Shown in pieces: positions 11,601 to 46,436 of a stretch of 64,000 bases of DNA (positions within the stretch are counted from its first letter, which is position 1; every line of letters starts with the position of its first letter). The stretch is from Clostridia bacterium (GTDB taxonomy: Bacteria; Bacillota; Clostridia; Oscillospirales; CAG-272), in NCBI GenBank assembly GCA_017473865.1, contig JAFUJB010000007.1, positions 1 through 64,000 of the forward strand. Direction: 5' to 3'. The notes beneath the pieces were generated by a model, which worked only from the letters and a program-made list of their open reading frames with translations, made no database searches and had not been told where the DNA came from. The translations under genes and the position numbers were made by a program.

Positions 11601-11633
11601 AATATAGTCCCCATTTATAAATGATTTTTTCTT

Positions 11634-11716
11634 TTTTAAAAGATTTGTTTCTCTTTTCTTGCCCTTAATTACCACAAATATTTTTGTCAAGATACGCCCG
11701 GAAGTGCGGATGAAAA
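11634..11716. repeat. Intergenic repeat copy A
   Basis: About 80 bp sharing roughly three quarters of its bases with 14105-14183. The identical core is accacaaatatttttgtcaa. It precedes the frameshifted lipoprotein gene. The minus strand has TTGACA but only a weak -10, so it may be a promoter-region duplication. Confidence 0.6.
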
Positions 11717-11772
11717 CGCCTCTAAAAATTTCGGTCATCATTTTTCCTTTAATAAATAATTAGAATCATTAT

Positions 11773-13167: not shown

Positions 13168-13209
13168 AAATAGTCCCCATTCATTAGTCTTTTTCTACAA
13201 AAATAAAAT

Positions 13210-13359
13210 TTACATATATACTTGAGATAACATCGTCACATCTATTTTTGATTGTGCGGTTTGTTCACCGCTTAAACTATCATAAATATAGTACACCTTG
13301 GTCAAACCGGCATGCTCATATCGCGATAACAGCGGTACTTGAAAGCAGGGGCTGAAAAT
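13210..13359 (-). pseudogene. Possible decayed coding fragment
   Basis: The minus frame reads about 49 codons without a stop, ending PLLSRYEHAGLTKVYYIYDS... TMLSQVYM and a TAA at 13210. There is no start or ribosome site, and the base composition is richer in G and C than the flanks. It may be the tail of a lost gene. Family not recognised. Confidence 0.3.
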
Positions 13360-13375
13360 TATCGATAATGTTTAT

Positions 13376-13912: not shown

Positions 13913-14104
13913 TTTAAGGCCTCTTTCATTAAATCATAAGAAATTCAACTTCTTTTCCCAAATCATTAGGTCAGGATTTTTATAAATCAAAATACTCTTT
14001 ATGACTAATATTATACGATGTCACTATTACTCTATCACAAATGGCTATAAATGTAAAGAATATTATACTTGACTTTGTCAAGTATGACTTGCATGTCCGT
14101 TTTT

Positions 14105-31262: not shown

Positions 31263-31297
31263 ATTATCCACCCTTTATATAAAACACTATTATTACC

Positions 31298-31367: not shown

Positions 31368-32321
31368 TCAGAATTCGTTTTTCAATGAACGGGTAAACAG
31401 CTCACGGAACTCGGCATCAATGTCGTTTCCGTTGTACAAAACGTTGTAAACCGCGCTGCATATCGGCATATCAACATTATGCTCCGACGCCAGCTTCAGT
31501 ATTGCCTTAACTGTATAATATCCCTCTGCAAGACTTCCGTACGTTTCTCCTTTTGCAAACGTTTCACCGTACATTCTGTTGTGGCTGAATTTTGAGAAAA
31601 GAGTCGCTTCATAGTCGCCAAGATGGCAGAGTCCGTATGCCGACAGCTCATTTCCTCCTAAAGCCTTTATCAAACGGGCAACTTCACGTGTACCCCTCGC
31701 CATAAGAGCACCTTTCAGAGATGATAATCCCTTTCCGTCAAGTATGCCTGCAGCAATACCGATAACGTTCTTTGCCGCCGCGCCGATTTCATTACCTATA
31801 AGGTCCTTTCCAAAATAAAATCTTATCAGATCGCTTGAAAACTCGGAAATAAGATAATTCTTGTATTCGTCATTTTCGCTGTCAATGACCATACAGTTAG
31901 GTATTCCTTTGGTAAATTCTTCTACGTGACCGGGGCCTATCCATACGGCTATGTTCGTTTCGGGAGACGTTGCCTCTCTCACTACCTGAGAAAGTCTCAT
32001 TCCCGTCGAGATTTCAATTCCCTTCATACAGAGTATGTAGTCTCTGTCTTTCGCACCGTATGCCTGAAGCTCCTGCAACAGTCCTCTTACTGCCTGAGAA
32101 GGTATGGAAATTACCGTCGTTTTGTTCTTTGCTGCAACAGTTATATCATCGGTTATGTTCATTCTTGTGCCGAAGTCAACAACGCCGTTCGTCCTTGTTT
32201 CCATAATCTTTCTTATCTGCGGCAAGTCGTTTCCGTAAAGCGTTACGTTGTGTCCGATCTTGTCGAGATACCACGCTATACATGACCCCCATCTACCGCA
32301 ACCGATTACCGTAATATCCAT
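31368..32321 (-). CDS. gpsA: Glycerol-3-phosphate dehydrogenase [NAD(P)+]
   Basis: Reduces DHAP to sn-glycerol-3-phosphate for phospholipid synthesis. The N-terminal cofactor motif is VIGCGRWGS (residues 5-13). The substrate-binding core is GNEIGAAAKNVIGIAAGILDG, with the catalytic Lys in AAKN. 317 residues is slightly short of the usual 330 but complete. It has its own promoter and is divergent from the phage cassette. Confidence 0.93.
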   Translation of the reverse strand: MDITVIGCGRWGSCIAWYLDKIGHNVTLYGNDLPQIRKIMETRTNGVVDFGTRMNITDDITVAAKNKTTVISIPSQAVRGLLQELQAYGAKDRDYILCMKGIEISTGMRLSQVVREATSPETNIAVWIGPGHVEEFTKGIPNCMVIDSENDEYKNYLISEFSSDLIRFYFGKDLIGNEIGAAAKNVIGIAAGILDGKGLSSLKGALMARGTREVARLIKALGGNELSAYGLCHLGDYEATLFSKFSHNRMYGETFAKGETYGSLAEGYYTVKAILKLASEHNVDMPICSAVYNVLYNGNDIDAEFRELFTRSLKNEF

Positions 32322-32424: not shown

Positions 32425-32466
32425 TTCTCCCTGCTTTTTTTGCTGTTTCAGGGAGAATTTTTTTCT
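32425..32466 (+). terminator. Rho-independent terminator upstream of the phage cassette
   Basis: Plus strand TTCTCCCTG / CAGGGAGAA, 15-nt loop, then TTTTTTTCTTG. No plus-strand gene lies before it in the window, so it is either a leader attenuator of the phage operon or a barrier that insulates it. Confidence 0.75.
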
Positions 32467-32543
32467 TGTTTTTGGTAAAATACCGCCAAAGCAAAACAAC
32501 TGTATTATTCAATTCCCACCCCCTTTTTACAAAACCAAAAGAG

Positions 32544-33020
32544 GTGATCACCATTATTCTTGACTACGAAAAAGCAGAGGAAGAATACATCTCCTCAAAC
32601 CTGTCATACGCCGCGCTTGCTTCAAAATATAATATCCCCCTGCGTCTGCTCGCGCGCTATGCCAAGGACAATAACTGGGTCAGCAAAAGAAAAAGGTACA
32701 ACGCTTCCCCCGATAGCTGTGTTATTGACGTTTCAAGACTTGCCCGTTCCTCCGATACCCTTGATACAATTATTGAAAACGCCTTTACCGACCTTTCTTT
32801 GCAGACCTCCGACAAAAAAGAAGTTGACACAAAGACCTTGAAAGACCTTACTTCAACCTTGAAAGAAGCCATTAACATCAAACAGAATATCTTTCTCCTT
32901 CCTATGCTTACAGAGCAGAAACAGCTTGAGCTTGACAAGGTCAGAAATCCGTCCGACAATTCTTCAGAAAATGAGATCAAGATTTCTCTTGAAGACGATA
33001 CGGACAAGTACTGTGTATAG
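32544..33020 (+). CDS. Phage terminase small subunit-like protein
   Basis: 158 residues from an in-frame GTG. A helix-turn-helix of the terminase small-subunit type is near the start (LSYAALASKYNIPLRLLARY, then NNWVSKRKRY). The rest is helical and acidic. It directly precedes the large subunit, which supports the call. Start: GAGG (32541-32544) is 8 nt before an ATT at 32553, where ATG would be expected; the in-frame GTG at 32544 overlaps the ribosome site. The true initiator may be ATT. Confidence 0.75.
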   Translation: MITIILDYEKAEEEYISSNLSYAALASKYNIPLRLLARYAKDNNWVSKRKRYNASPDSCVIDVSRLARSSDTLDTIIENAFTDLSLQTSDKKEVDTKTLKDLTSTLKEAINIKQNIFLLPMLTEQKQLELDKVRNPSDNSSENEIKISLEDDTDKYCV

Positions 33021-33036
33021 AATTCTCTGAAAAGGA

Positions 33037-34428
33037 GTGATTTCTATAAAACAGCTCTCACTTGGTATCCCAAATCCTAAACAGGCAGAATTTTTGCAGG
33101 ATACACACAAATACGTCGCTTTCGGGGGTGCTCGCGGAGGCGGAAAATCGTGGGCGGTCAGAGTTAAAGCAATTTTACTTGCTATCAAATTCCCAAAAAT
33201 TAAAATTCTTATAGTCAGAAAAACGCTTTCCGAACTGAGAAATAACCATATTACCCCGCTCGTTTCCGCTACAAACGGCATTGCAGTTTATAACGATTCA
33301 AAAAAAGAACTGACCTTCAAAAATAAATCTACAATACGATTCGGGTACTGCTCGTGCCAAGCCGACCTGACTCAGTATCAAGGATCAGAGTGGGACGTTA
33401 TTTTTCTTGACGAGGCAACGCAATTGCGCGAAGAATGGTTCGACGAGCTTAAGGTTACGGTACGAGGTGTAAACGATTTCCCCAAAAGGGTCTATTTGAC
33501 CTGTAACCCCGGCGGTGTGGGTCATTCGTGGGTTAAAAGACTTTTCATCGACAGAATCTATAAAGAGGGCGAAGACCCGTGCGATTACAGCTTTATCCGT
33601 TCTCTCGTTTCTGACAACAAAGCGCTGATGGAGAAAAATCCCGATTATGCAAAACAGCTTTCTTCCCTGCCTCCCAAGCTGAAAAAGGCGTGGCTTGAAG
33701 GCGATTGGAACATATTTGAAGGGCAGTTTTTTGAGGATTTTATCGACGCTCCCGAGCACTATTCCGACAGACTTTACACCAACGTAATAGAGCCCTTTGA
33801 AGTTCCTCACGACTGGAATATAGTGCGTAGTTTCGACTGGGGTTTTGCCAAACCCTTCGACTGCTCGTGGTGGGCAATCGACTACGAGGGACGCGCCTAT
33901 CTTATTCTTCAGTTTTATGGGTGTACGGGCGTTGCAAATGAGGGTCTGAAGTGGCACGCGGAAAAAGTTTTTGCGGAAATACACAGAATCGAAACCGAAC
34001 ACCGTTGGCTTAAGGGTAAAAAAATTACGGGTATAGCCGACCCTTCAATATGGAGCGAGGACGGGGGACTTCCTATAATTGCTTCGGCAGACAGACATCA
34101 GGTATATTTTCAAAAAGCTGACAACAGCCGTATCCCCGGATGGATGCAAGTACATTACAGACTATCCTTCGATGAAGACGGAAAACCGATGGTTTATTTT
34201 TTTAACACCTGTAAGCACGCAATAAGGACTCTCCCGCTATTACAGTACAGCGCGGTCAATCCCGAAGACCTGGATACGTCTCAGGAAGACCACTTTGCAG
34301 ATTCTTTCCGCTATTTCTGTATGTCGCGTCCTATTGCTCCAAGCAAAAACACACTCCAAAAAACACCGCCGGACGACCCGCTTGAACTCCTTTCGGATAA
34401 AAAATACCGCCTTTACAGTTACGTGTAA
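33037..34428 (+). CDS. Phage terminase large subunit
   Basis: DNA-packaging motor, 464 codons. Walker A is FGGARGGGKS (residues 29-38), Walker B VIFLDEA (121-127), and the coupling region YLTCNPGG. The C-terminal nuclease half has FDWGFAKPFDCSWWAID with acidic residues. AAAGGAG (33031-33037) is 8 nt before an ATA at 33046; the in-frame GTG at 33037 overlaps the ribosome site. As in the preceding gene, no ATG is usable. The ATPase and nuclease motifs are intact. Confidence 0.93.
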   Translation: MISIKQLSLGIPNPKQAEFLQDTHKYVAFGGARGGGKSWAVRVKAILLAIKFPKIKILIVRKTLSELRNNHITPLVSATNGIAVYNDSKKELTFKNKSTIRFGYCSCQADLTQYQGSEWDVIFLDEATQLREEWFDELKVTVRGVNDFPKRVYLTCNPGGVGHSWVKRLFIDRIYKEGEDPCDYSFIRSLVSDNKALMEKNPDYAKQLSSLPPKLKKAWLEGDWNIFEGQFFEDFIDAPEHYSDRLYTNVIEPFEVPHDWNIVRSFDWGFAKPFDCSWWAIDYEGRAYLILQFYGCTGVANEGLKWHAEKVFAEIHRIETEHRWLKGKKITGIADPSIWSEDGGLPIIASADRHQVYFQKADNSRIPGWMQVHYRLSFDEDGKPMVYFFNTCKHAIRTLPLLQYSAVNPEDLDTSQEDHFADSFRYFCMSRPIAPSKNTLQKTPPDDPLELLSDKKYRLYSYV

Positions 34429-34464
34429 AAGCAAAACAAATTGTATCAAACTACGAGGTATTTT

Positions 34465-36366
34465 ATGAAAAATAAAAACACAAAGAAAAAGCCTACAAAA
34501 GCTGTTTTACCGCCCGAAAAACCGTTTATCCCCTATGACTATGTGCCCGATAAGATTAATCAGCGTTCTCTCGACAAGGCATATAATCTCTTAAAAAAAT
34601 ATAAGTCGGGTAAGACAAATCTCGAAAAAAGAATTATCGAAAACGATCTTTGGTGGAAAATGCGGCATTGGGAGCAGATACGAGACAGGGACAGAAAATA
34701 CTATCCCGCATCCGCCTGGCTTTTCAACGCTATTGCAAACAAGCACGCTGACGTTATGGATAATTGCCCCGAGGGTATTGTTCTCCCCAGAGAAAAAAGC
34801 GATTCGGATGCCGCAAAACAGCTTACCGATATACTCCCCGTTATTCTTGAACAAAACAGCTTCGAGGAATTATATTCTGACGTATGGTATGACAAGCTGA
34901 AAGGCGGAACGGGTGTTTACGGAATATTCTGGGACCCTTCACTCAACAACGGAACGGGAGATATCGCAATTAAAAGATGCGACGTACTCAATCTTTTCTG
35001 GGAGCCCGGCGTTTCGGACATTCAATCTTCTCCCCACCTTTTCCACGTAGAACTTTTTAACAACGACGAGCTTGAATCAAAATATCCTTCCCTACACGGC
35101 AAACTCGGTCAAAATGGTTTTGACGTTACAAAATACCGTTATGATGACGCAGTCGACACCGGTAACAAAACTCCCGTTATCGATTGGTATTACAAGACTT
35201 CTTACAACGGAAAGACGCTCTTACACCTGTGTAAATTCTGCGCGGATGAGATACTTTATTCGTCAGAAAACGATATAACGCTTTACAACAGAGGCTATTA
35301 CGACCACGGACTCTATCCCTTTATATTCGATAAGCTTTACGTAGAGCAAGGCACGCCTTGCGGCTTTGGTTTTATCGACGTTATGAAGGATACCCAGACG
35401 CAGATTGACCTTATGAGCGCATCGGTATGCGAAAACATTCGTATGGCATCTACCGTCCGCTACTTTGCTCGCGGCGACGGCTCGGTAAACGAGAGAGAAT
35501 TTGCCGACTGGACTAACCCTATCGTACACTACACCGGTTCAGGTAACCCCAATGACAGTATGATTCCCATAAGAATCCCCGAAATGCCCTCTCTTTACGT
35601 TTCATTTATCAATAATAAAATCAACGAACTTAAAGAAACGTCGGGCAACTCGGATTTTACAAGAGGTAATACTGCCTCCGGCGTTACGGCAGCGTCTGCT
35701 ATCGCCGCTCTGCAAGAAGCGGGAAGCAAGCTTTCAAGAGATATGATTAAAGGCTCTTACAACGTATTTGTAAAAATCAACAATCTTATTATTGAGCTTA
35801 TCAGGCAATTTTACGACCTTCCCAGATGTTTCAGAATCACGGGAGAAAACGGCGAATACGAGTTTGTTTCATACACCAACAAAATGCTTCTTCCTCAGAA
35901 TATGGGTAACAGCTTCGGCTTTGATCTCGGAAACAGACTGCCTGTCTTTGACATCAAAGTAAAAGCTCAGAAACAGACGGCTTTTTCAAAACTATCCCAG
36001 AACGAGCTTGCAAAAGAATTCTACGGACTCGGATTCTTTGAACCGGCAAGAGCCGACTCTGCTCTTGCCTGCCTTGATATGATGGAATTTGAGGGAAAAA
36101 ACATTCTGGCAGAAAAAATTAACGAAAGAAACACTTTTGCAAACAATTATTCCGAAATGTATTCAAAACTGCTTGATTTGGCTTCGATTATTGAAAAAGA
36201 ACATCCTGAATTAAGCGGAATATATAATGCATTTGAGCACAAATACTCACCTGAACAAAAAGGAAAAAATCAGACCAGACGTACGCCTAATATATCATTT
36301 AAGAAAGGTTCGTCAAACATAAAAAATGCCCGCCAAAGAGCTACCTCTGCGGCAACCCCCAAATAA
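34465..36366 (+). CDS. Phage portal protein
   Basis: 633 residues from ATG 34465 (GAGG 8 nt upstream). It sits at the portal position after TerL. The middle (GFIDVMKDTQTQIDLMSASVCENI, then GNTASGVTAASAIAALQEAGSKLSRD) is typical of podovirus-like and SPP1-like portals, where the helical stretch lines the channel. The C-terminus is basic and disordered. A 118-bp gap with a weak hairpin follows before the scaffold gene. Confidence 0.88.
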   Translation: MKNKNTKKKPTKAVLPPEKPFIPYDYVPDKINQRSLDKAYNLLKKYKSGKTNLEKRIIENDLWWKMRHWEQIRDRDRKYYPASAWLFNAIANKHADVMDNCPEGIVLPREKSDSDAAKQLTDILPVILEQNSFEELYSDVWYDKLKGGTGVYGIFWDPSLNNGTGDIAIKRCDVLNLFWEPGVSDIQSSPHLFHVELFNNDELESKYPSLHGKLGQNGFDVTKYRYDDAVDTGNKTPVIDWYYKTSYNGKTLLHLCKFCADEILYSSENDITLYNRGYYDHGLYPFIFDKLYVEQGTPCGFGFIDVMKDTQTQIDLMSASVCENIRMASTVRYFARGDGSVNEREFADWTNPIVHYTGSGNPNDSMIPIRIPEMPSLYVSFINNKINELKETSGNSDFTRGNTASGVTAASAIAALQEAGSKLSRDMIKGSYNVFVKINNLIIELIRQFYDLPRCFRITGENGEYEFVSYTNKMLLPQNMGNSFGFDLGNRLPVFDIKVKAQKQTAFSKLSQNELAKEFYGLGFFEPARADSALACLDMMEFEGKNILAEKINERNTFANNYSEMYSKLLDLASIIEKEHPELSGIYNAFEHKYSPEQKGKNQTRRTPNISFKKGSSNIKNARQRATSAATPK

Positions 36367-36484
36367 TTACCCGCGATACTGTTTCTCTTTTTTCTTTAAT
36401 TACGGGGAGAGAAAAATATATATTTGCAGTATAATACACACGAGTTAACACAAAAACTCTGACACTTCGGAAAGGAACGATGAT

Positions 36485-37306
36485 ATGAAAAAAATCACAA
36501 AAAAAACCTTTGTTATTTCACTCCAGTTTTTTGCATCGGACGATAATTCGCTTAATGGCTCAAGCGATATAGTATCCGATGCGGGCGACGCATCGCCCGA
36601 ACAAGACGGCGAAAACAGACAGCCTTCCGTCGACACAGTACTTGCCGACGATCAGGCAGAGGCAGAATTCGAAAAGCTAATCAAGGGCGGAAAGTTTGAA
36701 AACGCTTTCAAAAAAAGAACACAAAGCATTATTGACAAGCGTTTCAAAACATTGAAAACCCTTGAAGATGCACAGGCAAAACAGCAGCCTATTATGAATT
36801 TTCTCTCCGAAAAATACGGAATTGACTCCTCTGACACATCCCGTCTGCTCGAACAAATGCAGAAAGAAAGTGAAATAAACAAGGCTAACGCTGAATCGCC
36901 CGATATTGCTAAAAAAGAACAAATGATTTCCGAAAAAGCCCGTATTCTTTCACAAAAATGGGCTTCAGAAGGCGAAATGCTGAAAAAGCATTTTCCCGAT
37001 TTTGACTTCAGAAATGAAATGAAAAATCCTTTGTTCTCCTCTTTGCTGAAAAACGGTATGCCTTTGCGTAAAGCCTATACTGCGGCTCATTCCGATGAAC
37101 TCATCAGAAATGCCGTTCAAGGTACTGCCCAAAGAGTTGCCGAGCAAACACTCAAAAGCATTCGGGCACAAGGCAGTCGCGTTGCCGAAAACGGTCTACA
37201 CAACGGCGCAGGCTTTGTCAGAAAAACAGACGTATCTTCCCTTACCGGCGAAGAAATCAGATCTATTCTTAAACAAGTCGAAAACGGCACAAAAATACGA
37301 TTCTGA
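36485..37306 (+). CDS. Phage scaffold-like protein
   Basis: 273 residues. The N-terminus holds the LQFFA motif (residues 14-18) common at the start of Firmicute phage scaffold and capsid proteins. An acidic low-complexity region follows, then a long helical, charged region (FKKRTQSIIDKRFKTLKTLE). Its position between portal and major capsid protein fits a scaffold that is lost during head assembly. GGAA is the nearest ribosome site. Confidence 0.75.
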   Translation: MKKITKKTFVISLQFFASDDNSLNGSSDIVSDAGDASPEQDGENRQPSVDTVLADDQAEAEFEKLIKGGKFENAFKKRTQSIIDKRFKTLKTLEDAQAKQQPIMNFLSEKYGIDSSDTSRLLEQMQKESEINKANAESPDIAKKEQMISEKARILSQKWASEGEMLKKHFPDFDFRNEMKNPLFSSLLKNGMPLRKAYTAAHSDELIRNAVQGTAQRVAEQTLKSIRAQGSRVAENGLHNGAGFVRKTDVSSLTGEEIRSILKQVENGTKIRF

Positions 37307-37357
37307 GCAAATTTTTGATTCTCCTGCGCAAATATTTCTAACAAAAGGAGATCTATT

Positions 37358-38695
37358 ATGGAAATGAATACTGTAAACAGCAACATTCACGGCACTGAAG
37401 GCTTTGTTAACGCAAATACCGGCGTTACTACAAACTACAACGGGGGCGGTCTTTCCGCCGAAATGAAAACCTTTTATGACAAAACGCTTATTGAACTTGC
37501 AAAACCTAACCTCGTTCATATGCAGTTCGGTCAGAAAAGACCTATTCCCGCAAATGGCGGCAGAACCGTTGAGTTCCGCAGAATGAAGCCCCTTGCCAAA
37601 AATCTTAACACCATTACCGAGGGTATCACTCCCGGCGGTACAAAAATGACGGTAGTTCCCCTTACTGCTACTCTTAATCAGTACGGCGACTACATTGAAC
37701 AGACAGACCTTATCGAAATGACTTCGATCGACAACACGGTTATCGAAGCTACAAAACTTCTTGCCGACCAGGCAGGCAGAACTATTGACACCATCGTGCG
37801 CGACGTTCTCCAGACAGGAACAAACGTTAACTACTGCTCAAAAATCAAAGACGGAGTATTGGTACCCGTAACATCAAGAGCCGCTCTTGATGAAACAGCA
37901 AAACTCCGTGTCGTTGACGTTTTTAGGGCTGCAGCTCAGCTTAAAGCTGTGAACGCTCCTACCATCGACGGAAAATACGTGGCTATTATTCACCCCCACG
38001 TTGCTTTCGACCTTATGCAAGAAGCGGGCGATGCTTGGTTGGATATCAAAAAGTATGCTGAACCCGAAAAGATCCTCAACGGTGAGTTGGGTTGCCTTGG
38101 CGGCGTTCGTTTCGTCGAATCTTCTGAAGCAAAAATCAACTGCTCAGGCGAAATCCTTCCCGGATTAAAAAATATTGACATCGTAGGCTTTAACGGTGAG
38201 GATAATCCCGATTTTTACCAAAATATCGACGGAATTGGTACAACGTATTCCCTTTCTGCAAACCAGATTATTACAAGCGAACTTGTAGGCAAGACGTTGC
38301 AGATTTTCAATCCCGTCTCCGAGACCGCTAAAGTATTTACGATCGTCGGTGTTTGCTGCAGCGAGCAGATGATTTTTGCAGACAGAGATTTAAGCGATGT
38401 GTTCTCCACATATTCCGCTCATCACGTGCTTTCTGCTTTTGGCGGAGGTTTAAACGGTATGGCTACATATTCGACCATCTTCCTCGGCAGAGACGCTTAC
38501 GGCATTATTGACATCAATGGCACCGGTACAATTGAGCACATCGTTAAGCAGAGAGGCTATGGAAACGACCCTCTCAACCAGAGAAGCTCTATCGGTTGGA
38601 AAGCGTTTATGTGCGCAGCTATCCTTGCTGACGACTACATTCTCCGTGTCGAGTCGGGTTCTTCTTTCTCCCCCAGCATAACAGAACCTAACTGA
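37358..38695 (+). CDS. Major capsid protein, N4-gp56 family
   Basis: 445 residues. The region from FYDKTLIELAKPNLVHMQFGQKRPIPANGGRTVEFRR through LNTITEGITPGG and YGDYIEQTDLIEMTS is characteristic of N4-gp56-family capsid proteins (HK97 fold, podovirus-like phages). The C-terminal part shows LGRDAYGIIDINGTGTIEHIVKQRG. AAAAGGAG is 7 nt before the ATG. A strong terminator region follows, as often seen after capsid genes. Confidence 0.9.
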   Translation: MEMNTVNSNIHGTEGFVNANTGVTTNYNGGGLSAEMKTFYDKTLIELAKPNLVHMQFGQKRPIPANGGRTVEFRRMKPLAKNLNTITEGITPGGTKMTVVPLTATLNQYGDYIEQTDLIEMTSIDNTVIEATKLLADQAGRTIDTIVRDVLQTGTNVNYCSKIKDGVLVPVTSRAALDETAKLRVVDVFRAAAQLKAVNAPTIDGKYVAIIHPHVAFDLMQEAGDAWLDIKKYAEPEKILNGELGCLGGVRFVESSEAKINCSGEILPGLKNIDIVGFNGEDNPDFYQNIDGIGTTYSLSANQIITSELVGKTLQIFNPVSETAKVFTIVGVCCSEQMIFADRDLSDVFSTYSAHHVLSAFGGGLNGMATYSTIFLGRDAYGIIDINGTGTIEHIVKQRGYGNDPLNQRSSIGWKAFMCAAILADDYILRVESGSSFSPSITEPN

Positions 38696-38711
38696 TTATC
38701 CGGGAGTTTAT

Positions 38712-38827
38712 ACAAGCGATAATATGCTTGTATAAAGTAATTTATTTTTTAAACAAATGAGTAAGAATGGCTTTGCCAAAATACTCGCTGTTGTATAAAA
38801 AGGGGGCTTTTTTCAGTAAAAAGTCCC
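38712..38827 (+). terminator. Terminator region after the capsid gene
   Basis: Two hairpins: TATACAAGC / GCTTGTATA at about 38712-38736, and GGGGGCTTTTT / AAAAAGTCCCC at 38802-38827. Only the second resembles a terminator stem; its T-run is within the loop side rather than after it. It probably reduces read-through from capsid mRNA or stabilises its 3' end. Confidence 0.5.
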
Positions 38828-38888
38828 CTGATTTATAATCTTTTTACAGTTGTATTTGCTTTTTATTTTTTACAAGGAGATTATTTCT

Positions 38889-39092
38889 ATGAATGATAAA
38901 GAACTCGTATCTGTTTTTATTCCCAAACGCTTCAAGGACGACGACGTCAGAACCGTCTCTGTTAACGGCAGATATATGACTATTCCCACGGGAAAGCCAT
39001 TTCTCATTGAGCCCTGTTTTGCAGAAGCGGTAAACAACGCGCTTCTCGCCGATGAGCTGGCTGAAAAATATATCAGCTCGGTCGCAAAATAA
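38889..39092 (+). CDS. Small phage protein, unknown
   Basis: 67 residues, start ATG 38889 with AAGGAG 9 nt upstream. It reads MNDKELVSVFIPKRFKDDDV..., small beta-rich then helical. Its position just after the capsid gene suggests a head-completion or decoration role, which is inference. Confidence 0.7.
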   Translation: MNDKELVSVFIPKRFKDDDVRTVSVNGRYMTIPTGKPFLIEPCFAEAVNNALLADELAEKYISSVAK

Positions 39093-39110
39093 AGAAATGC
39101 GAGGTTTTCT

Positions 39111-39485
39111 ATGACCCTGAAAGAAGCTGTTACAAAATTTGATTCGATTTGCAGAAATACTCTGCCCGAAGGGCTTAAAGTTGATTGGATATCTCTGCTC
39201 GACTCAACTATTTATAATGAAATTATCCTTACTCACGAAAATTATGAAAAGGTTTCTTTTTCTCCGTACACCGCAAACACACCCGATGATACGGTACTTC
39301 TCGTACCCGATCCCTATTCAGAATTATATCTGAAATACCTGACGATGAAAAAAGACCTCCACCTTGCCGACATTTCCCGTTACAACAACTCTCTCTTACT
39401 TTTTTCAACAGCATACACTGATTTTGAAAACTTTTATAATTCAAAAAATATGCCGATAAAAAAAGTAGATTATTTTAACATCTAA
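39111..39485 (+). CDS. Phage head-tail connector-type protein, unknown
   Basis: 124 residues, GAGG 6 nt before the ATG. Its size and place (between capsid and nozzle-like gene) match connector/adaptor proteins of podovirus-like phages. It contains LVPDPYSELYLKYLTMKKDLHLADI, similar in style to gut-phage connector proteins. Family not confirmed. Confidence 0.65.
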   Translation: MTLKEAVTKFDSICRNTLPEGLKVDWISLLDSTIYNEIILTHENYEKVSFSPYTANTPDDTVLLVPDPYSELYLKYLTMKKDLHLADISRYNNSLLLFSTAYTDFENFYNSKNMPIKKVDYFNI

Positions 39486-39506
39486 CTGCTAAATCAGGAG
39501 GTAAAA

Positions 39507-41300
39507 ATGATTTTGACAAGACTTAAACCTCCCAAGCTTTCGGAAAATACCGTCTCCGGTTTCAAGGGAATAAACAAGACACCTAAGGCTGATGAAACCT
39601 GTTTTTTTGATACTCAAAATACCTCATCAGCAGCCTTTCCTTTGCTTACAACTCGAGAAAAAAGACTTACCCTGTGTTCTTTTGACTCACTCCCGTCAGC
39701 TTTGCACACCGTAAACGGAATTACTTACACATTAAAAAACAATCTGTATTACAACGGCGTTTTACAGTTTGACGGACTGACGGATACAGACAAAAAACAG
39801 ATCGTTTCAATGGGTGCTAACGTTATAGTCTTCCCTGACGGATACTACATAAACACTCTCACGAAGGATGATAACGGAGTATGCTCGGAAAAAGGATATC
39901 TGTCCCAAAAATTTGTGGCAAACAAAGAAACCATAACTTTTGTCCCCTGCGTTTTTGACGCCGTGCCCGATATCTCGGAGACCCGACCTTCCGGAGCATA
40001 CGATATGATGCTTTGGCTTGACCGCTCGACTGTACCTAACAGAATACTTCAGTTTTCGTCTGTCGACAGAAGCTGGACCCCCATTGAATCCACACATATC
40101 GGCGTTATAGCAACCGGAATTGAACAGGGATTCAACGCTGATGATAATATTGAAATATCGGGCGTAGACGAGCTTACAAGCGGGTTAAACACAATTATTA
40201 ATAAGGGTGAAAACTATATTATTATTCAGGGATTAATACAAAACCTGTATACTGTTATTCCCACCCTATCATATCCCATCACTTTTGAACGAATCGTACC
40301 CTTGATGGACTTCGTGTGTGAACACCAGAACAGACTGTTTGGCTGCAGATACGGAAAAAATAAACATGGCGAATTCGTTAATGAAATATATGCCTGCAAG
40401 CTTGGTGATCCAAAAAACTGGAGCGCTTTTGACGGACTGTCCACCGACAGCTACACAGCCACTTGCGGAAGTGAAGGTAACTGGACGGGAATCGCCTCCC
40501 ATATGGGTTACGTAGTTTTTTTCAAAGAGCGCATTATTCACCGTCTTTACGGAACAAAACCATCCAACTTTACTCTTTATCAGGATGAATATCCCGGAAT
40601 AAAAAAAGGCAGTGAAAAATCACTTTGTCTTAATAACGGCACTTTATTCTATCATTCGGAAAACGGAATATTTGCTTATTCGGGAAGTGCGCCCGTATGT
40701 TTGTCTGATGATCTCGGCGATGAAAAATATTCTGACGCTTCTGCTGCCTTCTATAAGAACACATATTATATCTGTATGGCTGATTCAAAAGGCACTAAAC
40801 ACCTATTTACCTATGATGTAACCAAAAATTTGTGGCTTCGCGAGGATTCTTCAAACTATACGCAGCTTTCATATTATGATGGAAATATCCTTGGGATAAA
40901 GGATTCAGAAGACGGCTGTACACTCGACCTTCTTCTCAGCTCTTTTCTCCCCCCGCTCTGTAAACAGCTCTACGGCGGCTCGGCAACAGCCGAAGATGAT
41001 TTTGAGTGGTTTGCAGAAAGCGGAAAGATGGGACTGAAAATTGACAACTGCAAATTTATAAACAAGCTGAAAATTCGCTACGAAGGCGCTGTCGGCAGTG
41101 TTGTGAGCGTTTTTATTCAGCTTGATTCCAGCGGAATTTGGGAAAATTGCGGTTCATTTTCAAGCACGAAGCTAAAGCCTTTTGTGTTTGAAATCGTTCC
41201 TCCGAGGTGCGACCATTTCTCTGTTAAAATATGCGGAAAAGGCAGTTGCAAAATCTATTCAATGACAAAAGTTATTGAAATGGCGAGCGAGGTGTTATAA
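39507..41300 (+). CDS. Phage structural protein, tail-nozzle or stopper-like (beta-propeller type)
   Basis: 597 residues, GGAGG 5 nt before the ATG. Mostly beta strands with repeated short blade-like motifs (NRLFGCRYGKNKHGEFVNEIYACKLGDP...; GTKHLFTYDVTKNLWLRED). Beta-propeller-like proteins of this size form the nozzle or hub in short-tailed phages. No tape-measure or long-tail gene follows, so a podovirus-like tail is plausible. It ends overlapping the next ATG by 1 base. Confidence 0.6.
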   Translation: MILTRLKPPKLSENTVSGFKGINKTPKADETCFFDTQNTSSAAFPLLTTREKRLTLCSFDSLPSALHTVNGITYTLKNNLYYNGVLQFDGLTDTDKKQIVSMGANVIVFPDGYYINTLTKDDNGVCSEKGYLSQKFVANKETITFVPCVFDAVPDISETRPSGAYDMMLWLDRSTVPNRILQFSSVDRSWTPIESTHIGVIATGIEQGFNADDNIEISGVDELTSGLNTIINKGENYIIIQGLIQNLYTVIPTLSYPITFERIVPLMDFVCEHQNRLFGCRYGKNKHGEFVNEIYACKLGDPKNWSAFDGLSTDSYTATCGSEGNWTGIASHMGYVVFFKERIIHRLYGTKPSNFTLYQDEYPGIKKGSEKSLCLNNGTLFYHSENGIFAYSGSAPVCLSDDLGDEKYSDASAAFYKNTYYICMADSKGTKHLFTYDVTKNLWLREDSSNYTQLSYYDGNILGIKDSEDGCTLDLLLSSFLPPLCKQLYGGSATAEDDFEWFAESGKMGLKIDNCKFINKLKIRYEGAVGSVVSVFIQLDSSGIWENCGSFSSTKLKPFVFEIVPPRCDHFSVKICGKGSCKIYSMTKVIEMASEVL

Positions 41301-41809
41301 TGCTTTTTAATAATCCTCTTCCCGACATTAACGCCTTTTCAAAAGACGGCGATCTTAATCTAATCAAAGGTTATCTTTCTGCCCTTAATGATCAGCTGCG
41401 CTTTTTTATGGTCAATATTGACGAAGAAAACTTATCCGAAAATCTGCGCAACTCCATAAAAAACTCCTCGTCAGCAGTAAAAAAATGGTCTGCAGGCGAA
41501 AAAATAAACGGAAATGAATTGGCAGACGGAACTGTCTCTCCCACTAAGCTCCCCGTTGACAGTTTGCAAAAAAACGACCTTTCGTCAAATCCTTACGGAC
41601 TTAACATTGGAAAAGAGCTGTCGTTAAACAGAGATGACAAAATATGCAACATTACAGTAACCAAAAACGGTCTCCTCTATTTTTCTCAAGGAGCAGATAG
41701 TGTTCCCTTTTCGCTTGCACTACTCAAAAATAACGGACAGTATTTCTTCTATCTTGTTGATTCGGAAGGGCGTATCATCGGGACTATACCACTTCAAACC
41801 GATATATAA
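41300..41809 (+). CDS. Phage protein, unknown
   Basis: 169 residues, start overlapping the stop of the nozzle-like gene (TAATG). The N-terminal half is helical (LSALNDQLRFFMVNIDEENL). A short NGNELADGTVSPTKLPV linker resembles the hinge found in phage fibre or tail-tip proteins. The C-terminal beta part is unknown. It could be a small tail-tip protein. Confidence 0.6.
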   Translation: MLFNNPLPDINAFSKDGDLNLIKGYLSALNDQLRFFMVNIDEENLSENLRNSIKNSSSAVKKWSAGEKINGNELADGTVSPTKLPVDSLQKNDLSSNPYGLNIGKELSLNRDDKICNITVTKNGLLYFSQGADSVPFSLALLKNNGQYFFYLVDSEGRIIGTIPLQTDI

Positions 41810-41835
41810 CACTATATGAAAAGGAGTGAATTACC

Positions 41836-42804
41836 ATGGCTTCTTCTCTTTCTCAGAAAAAATATAACGAAAGCGAAAAAGTAAAAAAAGCTTATGAAGA
41901 CTATATAAACTATAAAGACTCAAACAAGCCGTCCGACTATTCTTTTTCCGACTCGGGACTTTTAAAACAAACGCAGGACAAGTATTTCAATATGCCCGAT
42001 TTCTCCTACGACGTTCAGAGAGATCCCATTTACAGACAGTACAGACAGTCTTATCTTACAGATGGAAAAAAAGCAATGGCGGACTCCATCGGAAACAGCG
42101 TATCATTGACAGGCGGCTACGGAAACTCTTTTGCACAGAATGCGGGCTTAAGTTCTTATAACAGCTACGTGGAAAAGCTGAACAACGTTATTCCCGAGCT
42201 TTATGATGCTGCTTACTCACGATATGAGACTGAGTTTGACAGACTCGAAAAACAGCTCGGTTACCTGTCCGACAAAAATGAGAAGGAATATGCCCGTTAT
42301 CTTGACAGCTACAACATATATTCCGACGAGGTAGACGACCTTCGTTCTCTTTATCTAAAACAGTACGAAAACGACATTGACATTCAGGACAGCGATTGGG
42401 AATCTGCTTATAAAATGGCTATGGCTGAGCAGGAAAAAGAGCGTGAAAAGGCTGAATTGGCTTACAAATACTACACTGAACAGCTGGAGCAGAAAAGATT
42501 TGATGATGAACTTGAATACAAAAACAATATATCTTCATCCGACGAAAAATTCCGCGAAGAAGAACTTGAGCTTGAGCGACAGAAGCTTGAAAACAATCGC
42601 GAACAATATTGGAATGACTTTAACTATAAAAACCAAACCATTCTGCGAGAGGACGAAATTTATACTCTGTGGCTTGAAGGATACGTTACAGAAGCTTTAC
42701 GCGCCCTCGAAATTTCGTGCGGTAATGCTGAATCGGCAAAGCATAAAGCTCTGCTTATGGGCTTCAACAAAAAAGAAGTTGAAAGGTATTTCAATAATAA
42801 ATAA
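41836..42804 (+). CDS. Phage coiled-coil protein, possible ejection or internal protein
   Basis: 322 residues. SVSLTGGYGNSFAQNAG (about 88-104) is a motif seen in short-tailed gut phages. The remainder is a long charged coiled coil (about 115-260, EKEREKAELAYKYYTEQLEQKRF) and ends in a small helical domain. It is a candidate internal/ejection protein by position and composition, not by proven homology. Confidence 0.6.
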   Translation: MASSLSQKKYNESEKVKKAYEDYINYKDSNKPSDYSFSDSGLLKQTQDKYFNMPDFSYDVQRDPIYRQYRQSYLTDGKKAMADSIGNSVSLTGGYGNSFAQNAGLSSYNSYVEKLNNVIPELYDAAYSRYETEFDRLEKQLGYLSDKNEKEYARYLDSYNIYSDEVDDLRSLYLKQYENDIDIQDSDWESAYKMAMAEQEKEREKAELAYKYYTEQLEQKRFDDELEYKNNISSSDEKFREEELELERQKLENNREQYWNDFNYKNQTILREDEIYTLWLEGYVTEALRALEISCGNAESAKHKALLMGFNKKEVERYFNNK

Positions 42805-42918
42805 TTTTGCGTTATCTTAAGATACATCGCTCTTTACGTTCTTTATTCGCGTATAAATTTTACTAATCAACGTTTACATTTTTAACTCATAAAAATATTG
42901 ATATAAGGAGAGATTTGT

Positions 42919-42975
42919 ATGAATTACGCAATTATTTCTCACAAATGCCCCCTGTTCTGCGAGGCGCTCATATGA
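42919..42975 (+). CDS. Tiny leader ORF coupled to the holin-like gene
   Basis: 18 residues (MNYAIISHKCPLFCEALI) with a strong AAGGAG 8 nt upstream. Its TGA overlaps the ATG of the next gene (ATGA at 42972-42975), and that gene has no ribosome site of its own. This suggests translational coupling; the peptide itself may have no function. Confidence 0.45.
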   Translation: MNYAIISHKCPLFCEALI

Positions 42976-43214
42976 CTACGGAACTGATTACATCTATAAT
43001 CGGCGTCCTCGGCAGTTTTCTTGGATCGCTCGCAGGCATTATGATAAATACCAAGCTGATGAACTACAGAATCGAACAGCTTGAAAAAAAGGTTGATAAG
43101 CATAACAAGGTCGTAGACCGCGTTTATAATCTTGAAAAGCATACTGCGGTTTTTGATGAAGACCTGAAGGTCGTAAACCACCGCATTTCCGATCTTGAGC
43201 TTTATCACAAATAA
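42972..43214 (+). CDS. Holin-associated membrane protein (XhlA-like)
   Basis: 80 residues. One membrane segment (ITSIIGVLGSFLGSLAGIMI, about 5-25) followed by a helical tail (IEQLEKKVDKHNKVVDRVYNLE) resembling hemolysin XhlA/holin-type proteins. It lies next to a second small membrane protein and the lysin. Start chosen at ATG 42972, coupled to the tiny ORF. Confidence 0.65.
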   Translation: MTTELITSIIGVLGSFLGSLAGIMINTKLMNYRIEQLEKKVDKHNKVVDRVYNLEKHTAVFDEDLKVVNHRISDLELYHK

Positions 43215-43234
43215 AACTTAAAAGGAGACTTTCA

Positions 43235-43465
43235 ATGAAAATATACTTGATAAAAAAACTGACCAGCCGAAAATTTTGGCTTGCCATTATAGGCTTTATT
43301 ACGCCCCTGCTTATCTCTTTCGGAGTAACTGAAAGCGCTGCAACTCAGATTGCAGGAATAATTATGTCGGGGGCAGCCTGCATCGCTTATATTGTAGGCG
43401 AAGGGCTGGTTGATGCGGAACAAGCTTATAATAAAAATTATGACTCTACCAATGATACACCCTAA
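43235..43465 (+). CDS. Phage holin-like protein
   Basis: 76 residues with two membrane stretches (FWLAIIGFITPLLISFGV; IAGIIMSGAACIAYIVGEGL) and a short charged tail, the pattern of small phage holins. AAGGAG 7 nt before the ATG. It immediately precedes the endolysin. Confidence 0.75.
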   Translation: MKIYLIKKLTSRKFWLAIIGFITPLLISFGVTESAATQIAGIIMSGAACIAYIVGEGLVDAEQAYNKNYDSTNDTP

Positions 43466-43481
43466 ACCAGAGGAGAATTAT

Positions 43482-44489
43482 ATGAAAAAATTTGGAATTG
43501 ATATTTCAAAATGGCAGGGAGATTTTAATCTCGAATCTGCAGTTACCGAAGGAGTATCTTTTGTAATAATCAAGGGCGGTGGAAACGACAACGGTCTTTA
43601 CACTGATTCAAAGTTTGAAGCAAACTACGCTAAAGCCAAAAAACTCAATATTCCCGTCGGTGTCTACTGGTTCAGCAAGGCTCTGTCCGAAAACGAAGCT
43701 GTAAAAGAAGCTGAATATCTTTACTCCGAAATACTGTCAGGTAAACAGTTTGAATTGCCTGTATATATTGACGTCGAACACGAAGACATGCTCTCTTTAG
43801 GCAAGGATAAACTTACATCTGTCATTGATAAGTGGTGCTCACAATTAGAAAGCAAAGACTTTTGGGTTGGTATCTATTCGTCTGTATATTCCTTCAGAAA
43901 TCATATGAATGACGAATATTTAAAAAAATATACCCACTGGGTCGCTCAGTGGGCAAAAGAATGTACTTATAATGATAAAAACGTTCTCGGAATGTGGCAG
44001 TTCGGCGGAGAAACCAATCTGATCAGAAATACTGCTGTTGCCGGAGTTGTGTGTGATCAGAACTATATGTATAAAGATTTTCCCACTCTTATCAAACAAA
44101 ATAATCTTAACGGTTTTTCAAACGAAACCCACACTTCCGCTAACGAAAAAAAATCATACGAAACAATAGCTTGCGAAGTTATTAACGGTAAATGGGGCAA
44201 CGGTAACGAACGGAAACACAATCTTACGAAGGCGGGCTATAACTATTATGCAGTTCAGTCACTTGTAAACGATAAGCTTAACAAAACAAAAGTAAAAGCG
44301 GGAGACCTTGTAAAAATGACTCCCGACGGCGTTATATACGGTACAGACAAAAAATTTGCAGGTTTTGTATATAATACGTTGCTTTACGTAAGAGAGCTTA
44401 AAGACAACAGAGCTGTTATTTCTATTCAGCCCGAGGGGGCAGTTACCGGTGCTGTTGACGTCAAATACTTGATAAAGCATAAAATATAA
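43482..44489 (+). CDS. Endolysin: GH25 muramidase with Cpl-7 domain
   Basis: 335 residues; lyses peptidoglycan by cutting MurNAc-GlcNAc. GH25 catalytic acids D7 (FGIDISKWQG) and D97/E99 (VYIDVEHED). A Cpl-7 type wall-binding repeat lies at about 226-262 (ACEVINGKWGNGNERKHNL...AGYNYYAVQ). The last 70 residues look like an SH3-type beta domain. No signal peptide, so release needs the holin. GGAG 6 nt before ATG 43482; the longer frame from 43410 is rejected. Confidence 0.92.
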   Translation: MKKFGIDISKWQGDFNLESAVTEGVSFVIIKGGGNDNGLYTDSKFEANYAKAKKLNIPVGVYWFSKALSENEAVKEAEYLYSEILSGKQFELPVYIDVEHEDMLSLGKDKLTSVIDKWCSQLESKDFWVGIYSSVYSFRNHMNDEYLKKYTHWVAQWAKECTYNDKNVLGMWQFGGETNLIRNTAVAGVVCDQNYMYKDFPTLIKQNNLNGFSNETHTSANEKKSYETIACEVINGKWGNGNERKHNLTKAGYNYYAVQSLVNDKLNKTKVKAGDLVKMTPDGVIYGTDKKFAGFVYNTLLYVRELKDNRAVISIQPEGAVTGAVDVKYLIKHKI

Positions 44490-44520
44490 AATTATGCTTT
44501 AAATAGCCACATTATGTGCA

Positions 44521-44557
44521 AAAAACTGTATATGGACTTTGTCCATATACAGTTTTT
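44521..44557. terminator. Bidirectional terminator at the end of the phage cassette
   Basis: Stem AAAAACTGTATATGGAC / GTCCATATACAGTTTTT with loop TTT. It serves the lysin operon and the convergent dehydratase gene. A smaller hairpin AAAGCATAA / TTATGCTTT lies at 44474-44500. Confidence 0.85.
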
Positions 44558-44561: not shown

Positions 44562-46436
44562 TTAAGGTTTGATAATAAAAGTAGGAACTATCTGCTTTAC
44601 AAGCGAACGTATATCAACAGTATCGTCTGCCATACAGTGTTTCATCTTGTGAAGCACTCCAAAGAAATGCTCCGAATCGATTTTGATAGGTCTGCCTATG
44701 TGGATCAGCGCATTTTCTGTCGCTCTCAGTCCCTCTTCATCCATAAGCAATTCTTCATAGAGCTTTTCACCGGGACGGAGACCGGAGAACTTAATATCAA
44801 TATCTCTATATGGCTCAAAGCCGGAAAGTCTGATAAGATTTTCCGCAAGATCAAGTATCTTGACGGGATTGCCCATATCAAGAACAAATATTTCCCCGCC
44901 CTTTGCCGATGCTCCTGCTTGAAGAACAAGTGAAACCGCCTCGGGAATGGTCATAAAATATCTAATAATATCCGGGTGCGTAACCGTTACCGGCCCGCCT
45001 GCCTGTATCTGCTTTTTAAATAAAGGAATAACCGAACCGTTGCTTCCAAGTACGTTGCCGAATCTTACCGCAACAAATTCCGTTTCGGAATGCTTGTTGA
45101 ATTCCTGAACGATCATCTCACAGATTCGTTTGCTTGCTCCCATTATATTCGTGGGATTAACAGCTTTGTCGGTGGAAATCAAAACAAATCTCTTAACCCT
45201 GAATTTATCAGCCATCTGTACGGTATTCAAAGTACCGAAAACATTGTTCTTTATTGCTTCATTCGGGCTGTCTTCCATAAGGGGTACGTGTTTGTGCGCC
45301 GCCGCGTGATAAACGATCTCGGGTCTGTATTTTTCAAAGACCATATCCATTCGCTGATTGTCTCTTACAGAGCCTATAAGAACTACGAGGTCGAGCATAG
45401 GATATTTTCTCTTTAGCTCCAGCTGAATGTCGTATGCATTATTTTCGTAGATATCGAAAATAATGAGCCGTTTAGGCTTGTATGCGGCAATCTGTCTACA
45501 CAATTCACTGCCTATAGAGCCGCCTCCGCCCGTAACCATAACTACCTTATCGCTTACGTAATCCATTATTGGCGCAAGATCGGTTTTTATGGGTTCTCTG
45601 CCGAGTAGATCCTCAATTTCAACGTCTCTGATGTTCTTGACATAATCGTGTTCTTCGTGATAACCTCCGCTTACCATTTGATAGATAGAAGGCATCACTT
45701 TTACAGCACAATTTGTTTTTGCACAAATATTCAATATTTCTTTCTTTGCTTCAGACGGACATGATGGAACAGCGAAAACAATCTTGGTTATACCAAATTT
45801 TTCAACGTTTTCTTCGATCCTATATCTGTTTCCCACAACGGGTATTCCATCAATTTGCATTCCATTTTTTGCCGGATCATCGTCTATAATACACTTGATG
45901 TTATATTCGTCGCTGTGCTTCATTTGCATTTCATAAACAAACAAATGACAAGCATCACCGGCGCCGATTATCATTGTATTATTATTTTCATTTGAAACGG
46001 TATTGAGTATGGTTGTCTTATACTTACGCTCAAGCTTATATATAATAACTCTTAGAATAACAATCGCAACGACCGCAAGAACACCTGCCGCAATGTGAAT
46101 TTTAAAATAATCAAATCCATCAAGCGCTTTTAAAAATACGGTTCCGCACGACATATGAATTACAAAAGAAATCATTTGGGAAAAAGTAACCGCAAGAATA
46201 AGTCTCAACATTTCCTGAAGGCTTGAGTAATACCAAACTATCTTATATATATTTGATACATACAAAAAAACAGCATATACGATTGCCTGAGCAACAAAAC
46301 CTATAAGAATGGTCGACCACATTCCCTGGGCAAATATTTTGGGCAGCAATGCTAACTCAGCAAAAAACAGCGCAAAAATCGCCAATATTATATCTAATAT
46401 CCGTAAAATATACGGTTTCCATTTTGAAATACGCAT
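44562..46436 (-). CDS. Membrane nucleotide-sugar 4,6-dehydratase (CapD/WbpM-like)
   Basis: 624 residues. The first about 140 carry four membrane segments. A CoA-binding-like Rossmann domain follows (TMIIGAGDACHLFVYEM). The SDR catalytic domain starts at about 300 with VMVTGGGGSIGSELCRQI. Conserved STDKAVNPTNIMGASKR and ILDLAENLIRLSGFEP complete the family pattern. These enzymes make 4-keto-6-deoxy sugars (often from UDP-GlcNAc) for surface glycans. It is single here, with no other glycan genes beside it. Confidence 0.9.
   Translation of the reverse strand: MRISKWKPYILRILDIILAIFALFFAELALLPKIFAQGMWSTILIGFVAQAIVYAVFLYVSNIYKIVWYYSSLQEMLRLILAVTFSQMISFVIHMSCGTVFLKALDGFDYFKIHIAAGVLAVVAIVILRVIIYKLERKYKTTILNTVSNENNNTMIIGAGDACHLFVYEMQMKHSDEYNIKCIIDDDPAKNGMQIDGIPVVGNRYRIEENVEKFGITKIVFAVPSCPSEAKKEILNICAKTNCAVKVMPSIYQMVSGGYHEEHDYVKNIRDVEIEDLLGREPIKTDLAPIMDYVSDKVVMVTGGGGSIGSELCRQIAAYKPKRLIIFDIYENNAYDIQLELKRKYPMLDLVVLIGSVRDNQRMDMVFEKYRPEIVYHAAAHKHVPLMEDSPNEAIKNNVFGTLNTVQMADKFRVKRFVLISTDKAVNPTNIMGASKRICEMIVQEFNKHSETEFVAVRFGNVLGSNGSVIPLFKKQIQAGGPVTVTHPDIIRYFMTIPEAVSLVLQAGASAKGGEIFVLDMGNPVKILDLAENLIRLSGFEPYRDIDIKFSGLRPGEKLYEELLMDEEGLRATENALIHIGRPIKIDSEHFFGVLHKMKHCMADDTVDIRSLVKQIVPTFIIKP

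What the first reader, a model, noticed from the sequence alone, without database searches (positions are those of the whole stretch)
32425..44557. Compact head-to-lysis phage cassette without integration, control or replication genes
Twelve co-directional plus-strand genes run from terminase to lysin with N4-gp56-type capsid, portal, scaffold, nozzle-like and ejection-like proteins. No integrase, excisionase, repressor, replication gene, long tail or flanking repeat is visible. It is bracketed by terminators and sits between gpsA and a dehydratase gene, with motifs intact in TerL, capsid and lysin. It may be a decayed short-tailed prophage, a satellite, or a domesticated particle such as a gene transfer agent. 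The intact motifs favour continuing selection.
Basis: partly seen in the sequence, partly recalled or inferred. Interest (0 to 1): 0.7.

Follow-up and report, generated by a model that had tools for sequence, protein, structure and literature searches.

The report
Domesticated short-tailed phage particle genes
A gut bacterium whose close relatives come from ruminants carries a complete, well-preserved set of genes for a small virus-like particle that is inherited like ordinary bacterial genes rather than moving like a virus, so it probably makes particles that ferry the bacterium's own DNA between cells.

Summary
Window 32450-44552 carries 13 intact co-directional genes from small terminase to lysin, with an N4-type capsid and a podovirus tail nozzle. 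No integrase, repressor, replication gene or att repeat was found, and GC matches the host. It is not a decaying prophage. All five genomes of the genus that the searches returned have TerL and capsid. Three species hold the whole cassette between gpsA and a capD-like gene; four keep the gpsA-TerS junction. pN/pS is far below 1 although synonymous sites are largely saturated. Packaging, capsid and host genes give the same five-species tree. In G004 the cassette is split into two unlinked, intact operons; a second genus shows a similar split. In this genus both operons start from one promoter type, RGGGAGA-N19-TANAAT. Best reading: a gene-transfer-agent-like element resembling FpGTA of Faecalibacterium (Nat Commun 2026), with lysis genes in the cassette and a dedicated promoter. 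Particles, packaging of host DNA and delivery were not shown, and homology to FpGTA could not be tested. TerS keeps a helix-turn-helix-like segment, a point against random packaging. Related cassettes in cultured Vescimonas and Monoglobus allow bench tests.

The parts
32450..32481 (+). Promoter of the packaging half: AGGGAGA-N19-TAAAAT
   Evidence: the element stands before TerS in all 6 loci compared (G000-G004, L149)
32553..33020 (+). Small terminase (TerS) with N-terminal helix-turn-helix-like segment; probable AUU start behind a GAGGTGAT ribosome site
   Evidence: (phrog_4151, phrog_1206); helix-turn-helix is my reading
33037..34428 (+). Large terminase (TerL); Walker A, Walker B and nuclease acidic residues intact
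   Evidence: motif names recalled
34441..36366 (+). P22-type portal protein
36404..36435 (+). Promoter of the capsid/lysis half: GGGGAGA-N19-TATAAT
36442..36482 (+). Conserved leader of the scaffold gene: short possible hairpin, then TGACACTTCGGAAAGGAACGATG
   Evidence: the hairpin is predicted in 4 of the 6 leaders (not clearly in G001, G004)
36485..37306 (+). Scaffold-like protein (named by position)
   Evidence: phrog_13908, unknown function; homologs
37358..38695 (+). Major capsid protein, N4 gp56-type
38850..39092 (+). Small conserved protein of the head module
39111..39485 (+). Possible head-tail adaptor (phrog_12105, unknown function); role inferred from position
39507..41300 (+). Tail nozzle (podovirus fold as in P22 gp10 and T7-type tails)
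41300..41809 (+). Fast-changing protein in the tail-fibre/adhesin position (169 aa here, 307-309 aa in G002, G003, G004)
   Evidence: role inferred
41836..42804 (+). Virion-module protein with conserved TGGYGNSYA-like motif, possibly ejection or needle protein
   Evidence: role inferred
42915..43214 (+). XhlA-like lysis protein (below Pfam cut-off)
43235..43465 (+). Holin-like small protein (no family match; named by size and position)
43482..44489 (+). GH25 endolysin with CW_7 wall-binding repeat
44526..44552 (+). Terminator hairpin at the end of the cassette
   Evidence: sequence

Best explanation
A domesticated podovirus that works as a gene-transfer-agent-like element. The packaging half (TerS-TerL-portal) and the capsid/tail/lysis half (scaffold to lysin) are each transcribed from the same kind of promoter, RGGGAGA-N19-TANAAT, presumably switched on by one unlinked host regulator in a minority of cells. 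Small short-tailed particles assemble, TerL fills them with pieces of the host chromosome, and holin plus GH25 lysin burst the cell to free them; the nozzle and adhesin-position proteins would deliver the DNA to sister cells. Shown here: gene content, vertical inheritance within the genus, purifying selection, stable or split chromosomal placement with both halves intact, a shared promoter. Inferred: particle formation, packaging of host DNA, the regulator, delivery.
For: TerL in 5 of 5 and capsid in 5 of 5 genomes of the genus. Whole cassette between gpsA and capD in 3 species, gpsA-TerS junction in 4 of 5. CapD+AspK, TerL+portal and scaffold+capsid trees share one topology, inner branches 0.947-1.00. 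pN/pS 0.07-0.31 for the 12 cassette genes comparable in the closest pair, pS 0.43-0.78. Split into two unlinked operons in G004 and, in a second genus, G012 and G079, each genome with one TerL and one capsid match. RGGGAGA-N19-TATAAT: 29 matches in 9 genomes, 32 for ten other spacings together, 3 for the backward control, and 2 in 15 family genomes without a TerL match. Nozzle fold. ComEC-family gene in 8 of 9 genomes. A podovirus-like GTA-like element with the same head order is experimentally known in Faecalibacterium (PMC12946183).
Against: No particle, packaged DNA or transfer was observed. TerS keeps a helix-turn-helix-like segment, whereas FpGTA TerS is described as lacking an obvious DNA-binding domain. 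Homology to FpGTA could not be tested. In L148/L149 the capsid gene runs in several frames. A 42 kb viral contig (L137) nests inside the wider TerL clade, so one family-wide domestication is not shown. AspK alone gives a weakly supported different tree (0.386). G003 has no ComEC match although 97% complete. No other gene with the promoter is an evident regulator. The genomes are MAGs, so splits could in principle be assembly or binning errors, though two g9 genomes agree.
Confidence: 0.68

Rival explanations
1. Domesticated particle with another job: a PBSX-like killing particle, or a lysis device that releases DNA, proteins or vesicles without delivering DNA.
For: The evidence for vertical inheritance and selection fits equally. 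The FpGTA authors raise the same option for their element. I identified no tailspike.
Against: Terminase, portal and nozzle are all conserved, which a pure lysis device would not need. No long-tail genes were recognised.
Confidence: 0.2
2. Prophage remnant in decay.
For: No integrase, repressor or replication gene recognised. A close lineage has its capsid gene in several frames.
Against: All 13 genes are open in the window, with pN/pS far below 1 at high synonymous divergence. Both halves survive after splitting. Trees match the host.
Confidence: 0.05
3. Satellite or helper-mobilised island that still spreads between hosts.
For: Compact size; viral contigs of about 42 kb with related head genes exist.
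Against: No PF00589 integrase on the contig, no att-like repeats, same locus in three species, host-congruent trees for both halves, two unlinked operons in G004, G012 and G079.
Confidence: 0.05

Closest known systems
FpGTA I/II of Faecalibacterium (PMC12946183; abstract, passages, sections 9, 10 and 26 read)
   Same: 10.5 kb operon with TerS, TerL, portal, scaffold and capsid; podovirus-like; no replication genes; operon I in all 12 Faecalibacterium genomes that the authors examined; further genes in a second unlinked operon
   Different: Here lysis genes are in the same cassette; TerS keeps a helix-turn-helix-like segment; a dedicated promoter type was found; gpsA-capD locus; sequence homology to FpGTA not tested
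RcGTA / CcGTA-type gene transfer agents of Alphaproteobacteria (mostly recalled; start of abstracts of PMC6363796 and PMC11150451 seen in listings)
   Same: Head-and-tail gene cluster kept by the host; a direct activator (GafA) is known there (listing)
   Different: Podovirus head and nozzle with N4-type capsid and a Clostridia host; no homology test against RcGTA was run
PBSX of Bacillus subtilis (as described in PMC12946183 section 10)
   Same: Domesticated phage particle in a Gram-positive host
   Different: PBSX acts as a tailocin and does not inject its DNA; its long contractile tail (recalled) has no counterpart recognised here
N4/P22-like podoviruses and viral contigs of about 42 kb (IMG/VR L137, L143, L159)
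   Same: Homologous terminase, portal, capsid and nozzle
   Different: Those lie on 41.7-42.7 kb contigs; L137 has genes upstream of TerS shared with integrase-bearing prophages; the window cassette has host genes there

Membership tests
Gene transfer agent (definition in PMC9662315, section 3) | Uses caudoviricete-derived proteins to form particles | tested here: met
   Protein homology and folds; particles themselves not seen
Gene transfer agent (definition in PMC9662315, section 3) | Genome fully endogenised, often across several loci | tested here: met
   No PF00589 integrase or att-like repeat; two unlinked operons in G004, G012, G079
Gene transfer agent (definition in PMC9662315, section 3) | Mostly vertical inheritance, host-congruent trees | tested here: met
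   for five species of the genus with two host genes; beyond the genus only suggestive
Gene transfer agent (definition in PMC9662315, section 3) | Packages mostly random host DNA | not testable with these tools
   Needs particle DNA sequencing
Gene transfer agent (definition in PMC9662315, section 3) | Head too small to hold its own genes | not testable with these tools
   Packaged length unknown; capsid model of modest confidence
Gene transfer agent (definition in PMC9662315, section 3) | DNA delivered to other cells | not testable with these tools
   Only hints: nozzle fold, ComEC-family gene in 8 of 9 genomes
FpGTA (Faecalibacterium) | TerS-TerL-portal-scaffold-capsid operon without replication genes | tested here: met
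   against the description; scaffold named by position
FpGTA (Faecalibacterium) | TerS without obvious DNA-binding domain | tested here: not met
   phrog_4151 'DNA binding protein' match and a conserved helix-turn-helix-like N-terminus, my reading; no structure made
FpGTA (Faecalibacterium) | Sequence homology to FpGTA proteins | tested here: inconclusive
   No Faecalibacterium genome could be identified: 16S probe pattern in 0 of 394 order genomes

The most novel reading that the evidence does not exclude
A long-lived lineage of podovirus-type gene transfer agents runs through rumen and gut Clostridia. One dedicated, unlinked activator reads GGGGAGA-N19-TATAAT promoters and so keeps physically separated packaging and capsid operons working as one machine. 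Related cassettes carry their own LexA-type or XRE-type control, and cultured species (Vescimonas fastidiosa, Monoglobus pectinilyticus) hold compact or dispersed versions.
Probability: 0.45. Interest if true: 0.82.

Novelty: new variant of a known kind. Interest (0 to 1): 0.7.

Why it matters
Few gene transfer agents have known genes. The first podovirus-like one was reported in 2026 for one human gut genus; the same paper saw GTA-like packaging in other gut Clostridia but reports operons only for Faecalibacterium. This locus supplies candidate genes in another lineage, evidence that the two halves are kept after separation, and a promoter with which to hunt for the regulator. If it works as proposed, capsid-mediated gene exchange is a standing feature of ruminant and gut Clostridia rather than of one genus.

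Tried and rejected
Empty site: in G004 the purine gene (window 25777-27042) borders capD directly, but the genes that lie between them in the window, gpsA included, are gone from there too, so it is not a clean empty site. Linkage of the cassette to gpsA beyond the genus: seen in G039 only; gpsA was searched in 89 of the relatives, too little to claim an ancestral site. Other carriers of the promoter motif: a Fic protein, a low-molecular-weight phosphatase next to a RimI-like gene, hrcA, uvrB, and several matches inside coding genes (gene names read from the translations, not searched); no evident regulator. In G063 the three best matches resemble each other beyond the motif, and the one before TerS is at the contig end, so it may be a repeat; I no longer count it as firm and lowered the novel case from 0.5 to 0.45. 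The motif scan beyond the genus (260 regions) has modest single-site values and a null that includes real sites; I use only G012/G079. The spacing test treats matches as independent, which repeats violate, and the 15 control genomes were not matched for base composition. Rfam: sub-threshold hits in the cassette, nothing in L149 4000-7700. Finding Faecalibacterium by a 16S probe failed. Four scripts stopped with errors. One search stopped before the last three host genes, and one cassette gene (38850-39092) was unusable in the closest pair. Synonymous sites are mostly saturated, so I give pN/pS. The integrase list (38 genomes) was cut off by the tool, so only its positive cases are used. Paper searches listed no paper on this cassette; that is no proof of absence.
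Full report
WHAT IS THERE. The window is contig C21 of a 1.3 Mb, 70% complete genome. Between gpsA (31368-32321, minus) and a capD-like gene (44562-46436, minus, PF02719) lie 13 plus-strand genes: TerS, TerL, portal, scaffold (by position), capsid, two small head/adaptor genes, nozzle, a fast-changing adhesin-position gene, a virion-module gene with a TGGYGNSYA-like motif, XhlA-like, holin-like, GH25 lysin. The nozzle model (mean pLDDT 90.8) has podovirus tail and nozzle proteins as its 25 best Foldseek hits, P22 gp10 and T7-type tails among them. The capsid profile and model match N4-type capsids, though that model is of modest confidence (70.9). TerL keeps Walker A, Walker B and the nuclease acidic residues (motifs recalled).

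NOT A MOBILE OR DYING PROPHAGE. PF00589 integrases: 12 matches in 5 genomes of the genus, none on the contig that carries TerL. Direct repeats around the cassette are at chance, and GC equals the host's. The nearest phage records reach 56.6% (TerL) and 43-51% (capsid) by protein, and none by near-identity DNA search. In contrast, related terminases in G074 (second copy), G030, G006 and G073 have an integrase 9-17 kb away, and G070 one at 19 kb, as ordinary prophages would.

VERTICAL INHERITANCE. TerL is found in 5 of 5 genomes of the genus (80-85% identity in the other four) and the capsid in 5 of 5, one match each. In G000, G002 and G003 the full cassette lies between gpsA and capD. G001 shares the gpsA-TerS junction, but its contig ends after the capsid gene, and its capD lies on another contig without the lysin beside it. 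In G004 the arrangement differs. Five-species trees of CapD+AspK, TerL+portal, and scaffold+capsid agree: (G002,G003) with G000, against (G001,G004), inner branches 0.952/1.0, 0.999/1.0 and 0.947/0.999. AspK alone departs with weak support (0.386); capsid and scaffold alone agree with 0.73 and 0.69. The nearest genome outside the genus, G063, is the same by AspK (73%) and by TerL (68%). In the closest pair pN/pS is 0.07 (TerL) to 0.31 (holin-like) in the 12 cassette genes that could be compared, with gpsA 0.08, UDG 0.08, capD 0.13 and the MecA gene 0.25; over all pairs computed the highest is 0.64, for the adhesin-position gene.

SPLIT BUT INTACT. In G004, TerS-TerL-portal is on contig C45, while scaffold through lysin is on C70, starting behind an ABC-transporter gene on the other strand and ending before a manganese-efflux gene and two genes that lie near the cassette in the window; TerL and capsid have one match each. 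In a second genus, G012 and G079 both carry TerS-TerL-portal-Prp at one locus with shared flanking genes (58-99% identical between them), and capsid-to-virion genes on another contig; in G079 that contig begins inside the capsid gene. In metagenome contig L149 (TerL 82% identical, inside the genus's TerL clade) the two halves point in opposite directions with an AMP-binding-enzyme gene between them; its capsid gene, like that of L148, is in several frames. In a further genus, G007 and one G074 copy share a 9 kb cassette with a conserved downstream host flank (91-93%). A phage could hardly live in two unlinked halves; that both stay intact points to selection on a host function.

ONE PROMOTER FOR BOTH HALVES. 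In the six loci compared (G000-G004 and L149), TerS and scaffold are each preceded by RGGGAGA-N19-TANAAT (12 of 12 sites). Genome-wide, the form with TATAAT gives 29 matches in 9 genomes, against 32 for the ten spacings N9-N18 together in the same genomes, 3 for the backward pattern, and 2 in 15 family genomes picked from those without a TerL match (rough binomial 7e-15). In the five genomes of the genus it is 20 against 25, of which 12 lie outside the cassette, some inside coding genes. In the second genus an exact match stands before the scaffold operon of G012 and a near match before TerS in G012 and G079; G079 has no exact match anywhere. A match before TerS of G063 may be a repeat. The scaffold leader carries TGACACTTCGGAAAGGAACGATG in all six, and a possible hairpin in some.

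HOW IT PROBABLY WORKS. Inference: one activator turns on both operons in some cells, particles form, TerL packs chromosome pieces, and lysin frees them. Delivery is plausible from the nozzle and a ComEC-family gene in 8 of 9 genomes; a MecA-type competence-regulator gene lies next to gpsA, which may be coincidence. TerS keeps a helix-turn-helix-like start, unlike FpGTA's TerS as described, so packaging could be less random than in FpGTA.

COMPARISON. The closest described system is FpGTA (PMC12946183, sections 9, 10, 26): a 10.5 kb operon with the same head genes, capsids of about 40 nm without identifiable tails, 8.4-8.9 kb of packaged host DNA, a second operon elsewhere. Of the six features in the published GTA definition (PMC9662315 section 3), three were tested and met and three need experiments. 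I therefore file it as GTA-like, not as a proven GTA.

WIDER PICTURE AND LIMITS. TerL relatives at E<=1e-30 occur in 91 of 146 genomes but include prophages; the capsid family at E<=1e-10 is in 39 of 146. In the TerL tree (118 rows) the genus is in a supported clade of 34 rows, 9 of them viral contigs, one of which (L137) is a 42 kb contig with prophage-like genes upstream, so how many times domestication happened is open. A second group (L076 and relatives) shares its own host flank in several species, with an XRE gene upstream and LexA-like boxes in 7 of the 10 upstream regions printed (box recalled). Cultured Vescimonas fastidiosa has a compact cassette among host genes, and Monoglobus pectinilyticus has TerL, portal and capsid dispersed.

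Noticed in passing
L076, L078, L082, L085, L088, L099, L102 (TerL at about 10000): A second group of head cassettes with a shared host flank (YdjC-type gene upstream), a small XRE regulator, and GAAC-N4-GTTC (LexA-like, recalled) boxes before TerS in 7 of 10 upstream regions printed for the wider group: possibly a separate SOS-controlled domesticated particle.
   Followed up: partly
window 32541-32555 and the same place in G001-G004 and L149: TerS seems to start at a non-standard AUU/AUA codon behind a good ribosome site; in G004 the overlapping GTG is out of frame and L149 has none.
   Followed up: partly
L272 (Vescimonas fastidiosa pMM35_01 759119-772553): Cultured gut isolate with a 13 kb cassette TerL-portal-Prp-scaffold-N4 capsid-nozzle between ordinary host genes, no integrase listed in the 33 kb stretch.
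   Followed up: partly
L273 and L274 (Monoglobus pectinilyticus): Portal and TerL flank an S24-type gene, TerL stands directly before ruvX, and the capsid operon is on another record between sugar-transport and S-layer genes.
   Followed up: partly
window 30648-31271 and L234 18326-18880: A MecA-family competence-regulator gene lies next to gpsA beside the cassette, and another MecA gene lies near the scaffold operon of G012.
   Followed up: no
G002:C73, G003:C26; G000:C7, G004:C29; G003:C16, G004:C77: The RGGGAGA-N19-TATAAT element recurs at matching places in two species each: before a phosphatase gene next to a RimI-like gene, before a Fic-like gene, and upstream of small unknown ORFs.
   Followed up: partly
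G063:C41 12713-12844 and G063:C87 8098-8129: Three motif matches in G063 resemble each other beyond the motif; one is at the end of the contig that carries TerL, so they may be a dispersed repeat or a multi-copy promoter.
   Followed up: no
L119 and L126 (IMG/VR contigs): Contigs listed as viral carry the host cassettes themselves (TerL identical to G002 and to host MAG locus L048), so virus catalogues may hold such cassettes as phages.
   Followed up: no
L148, L149: The capsid gene of this close relative of the genus runs in several overlapping frames in two separately assembled contigs.
   Followed up: no
window 11001-14000: Stretch of 28.6-29.6% GC, far below the 41% of the window as a whole.
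   Followed up: no
OY725860.1 (Subdoligranulum variabile, 6285 bp record): A 6.3 kb record filed as a plasmid carries a related TerL at 41% identity.
   Followed up: no
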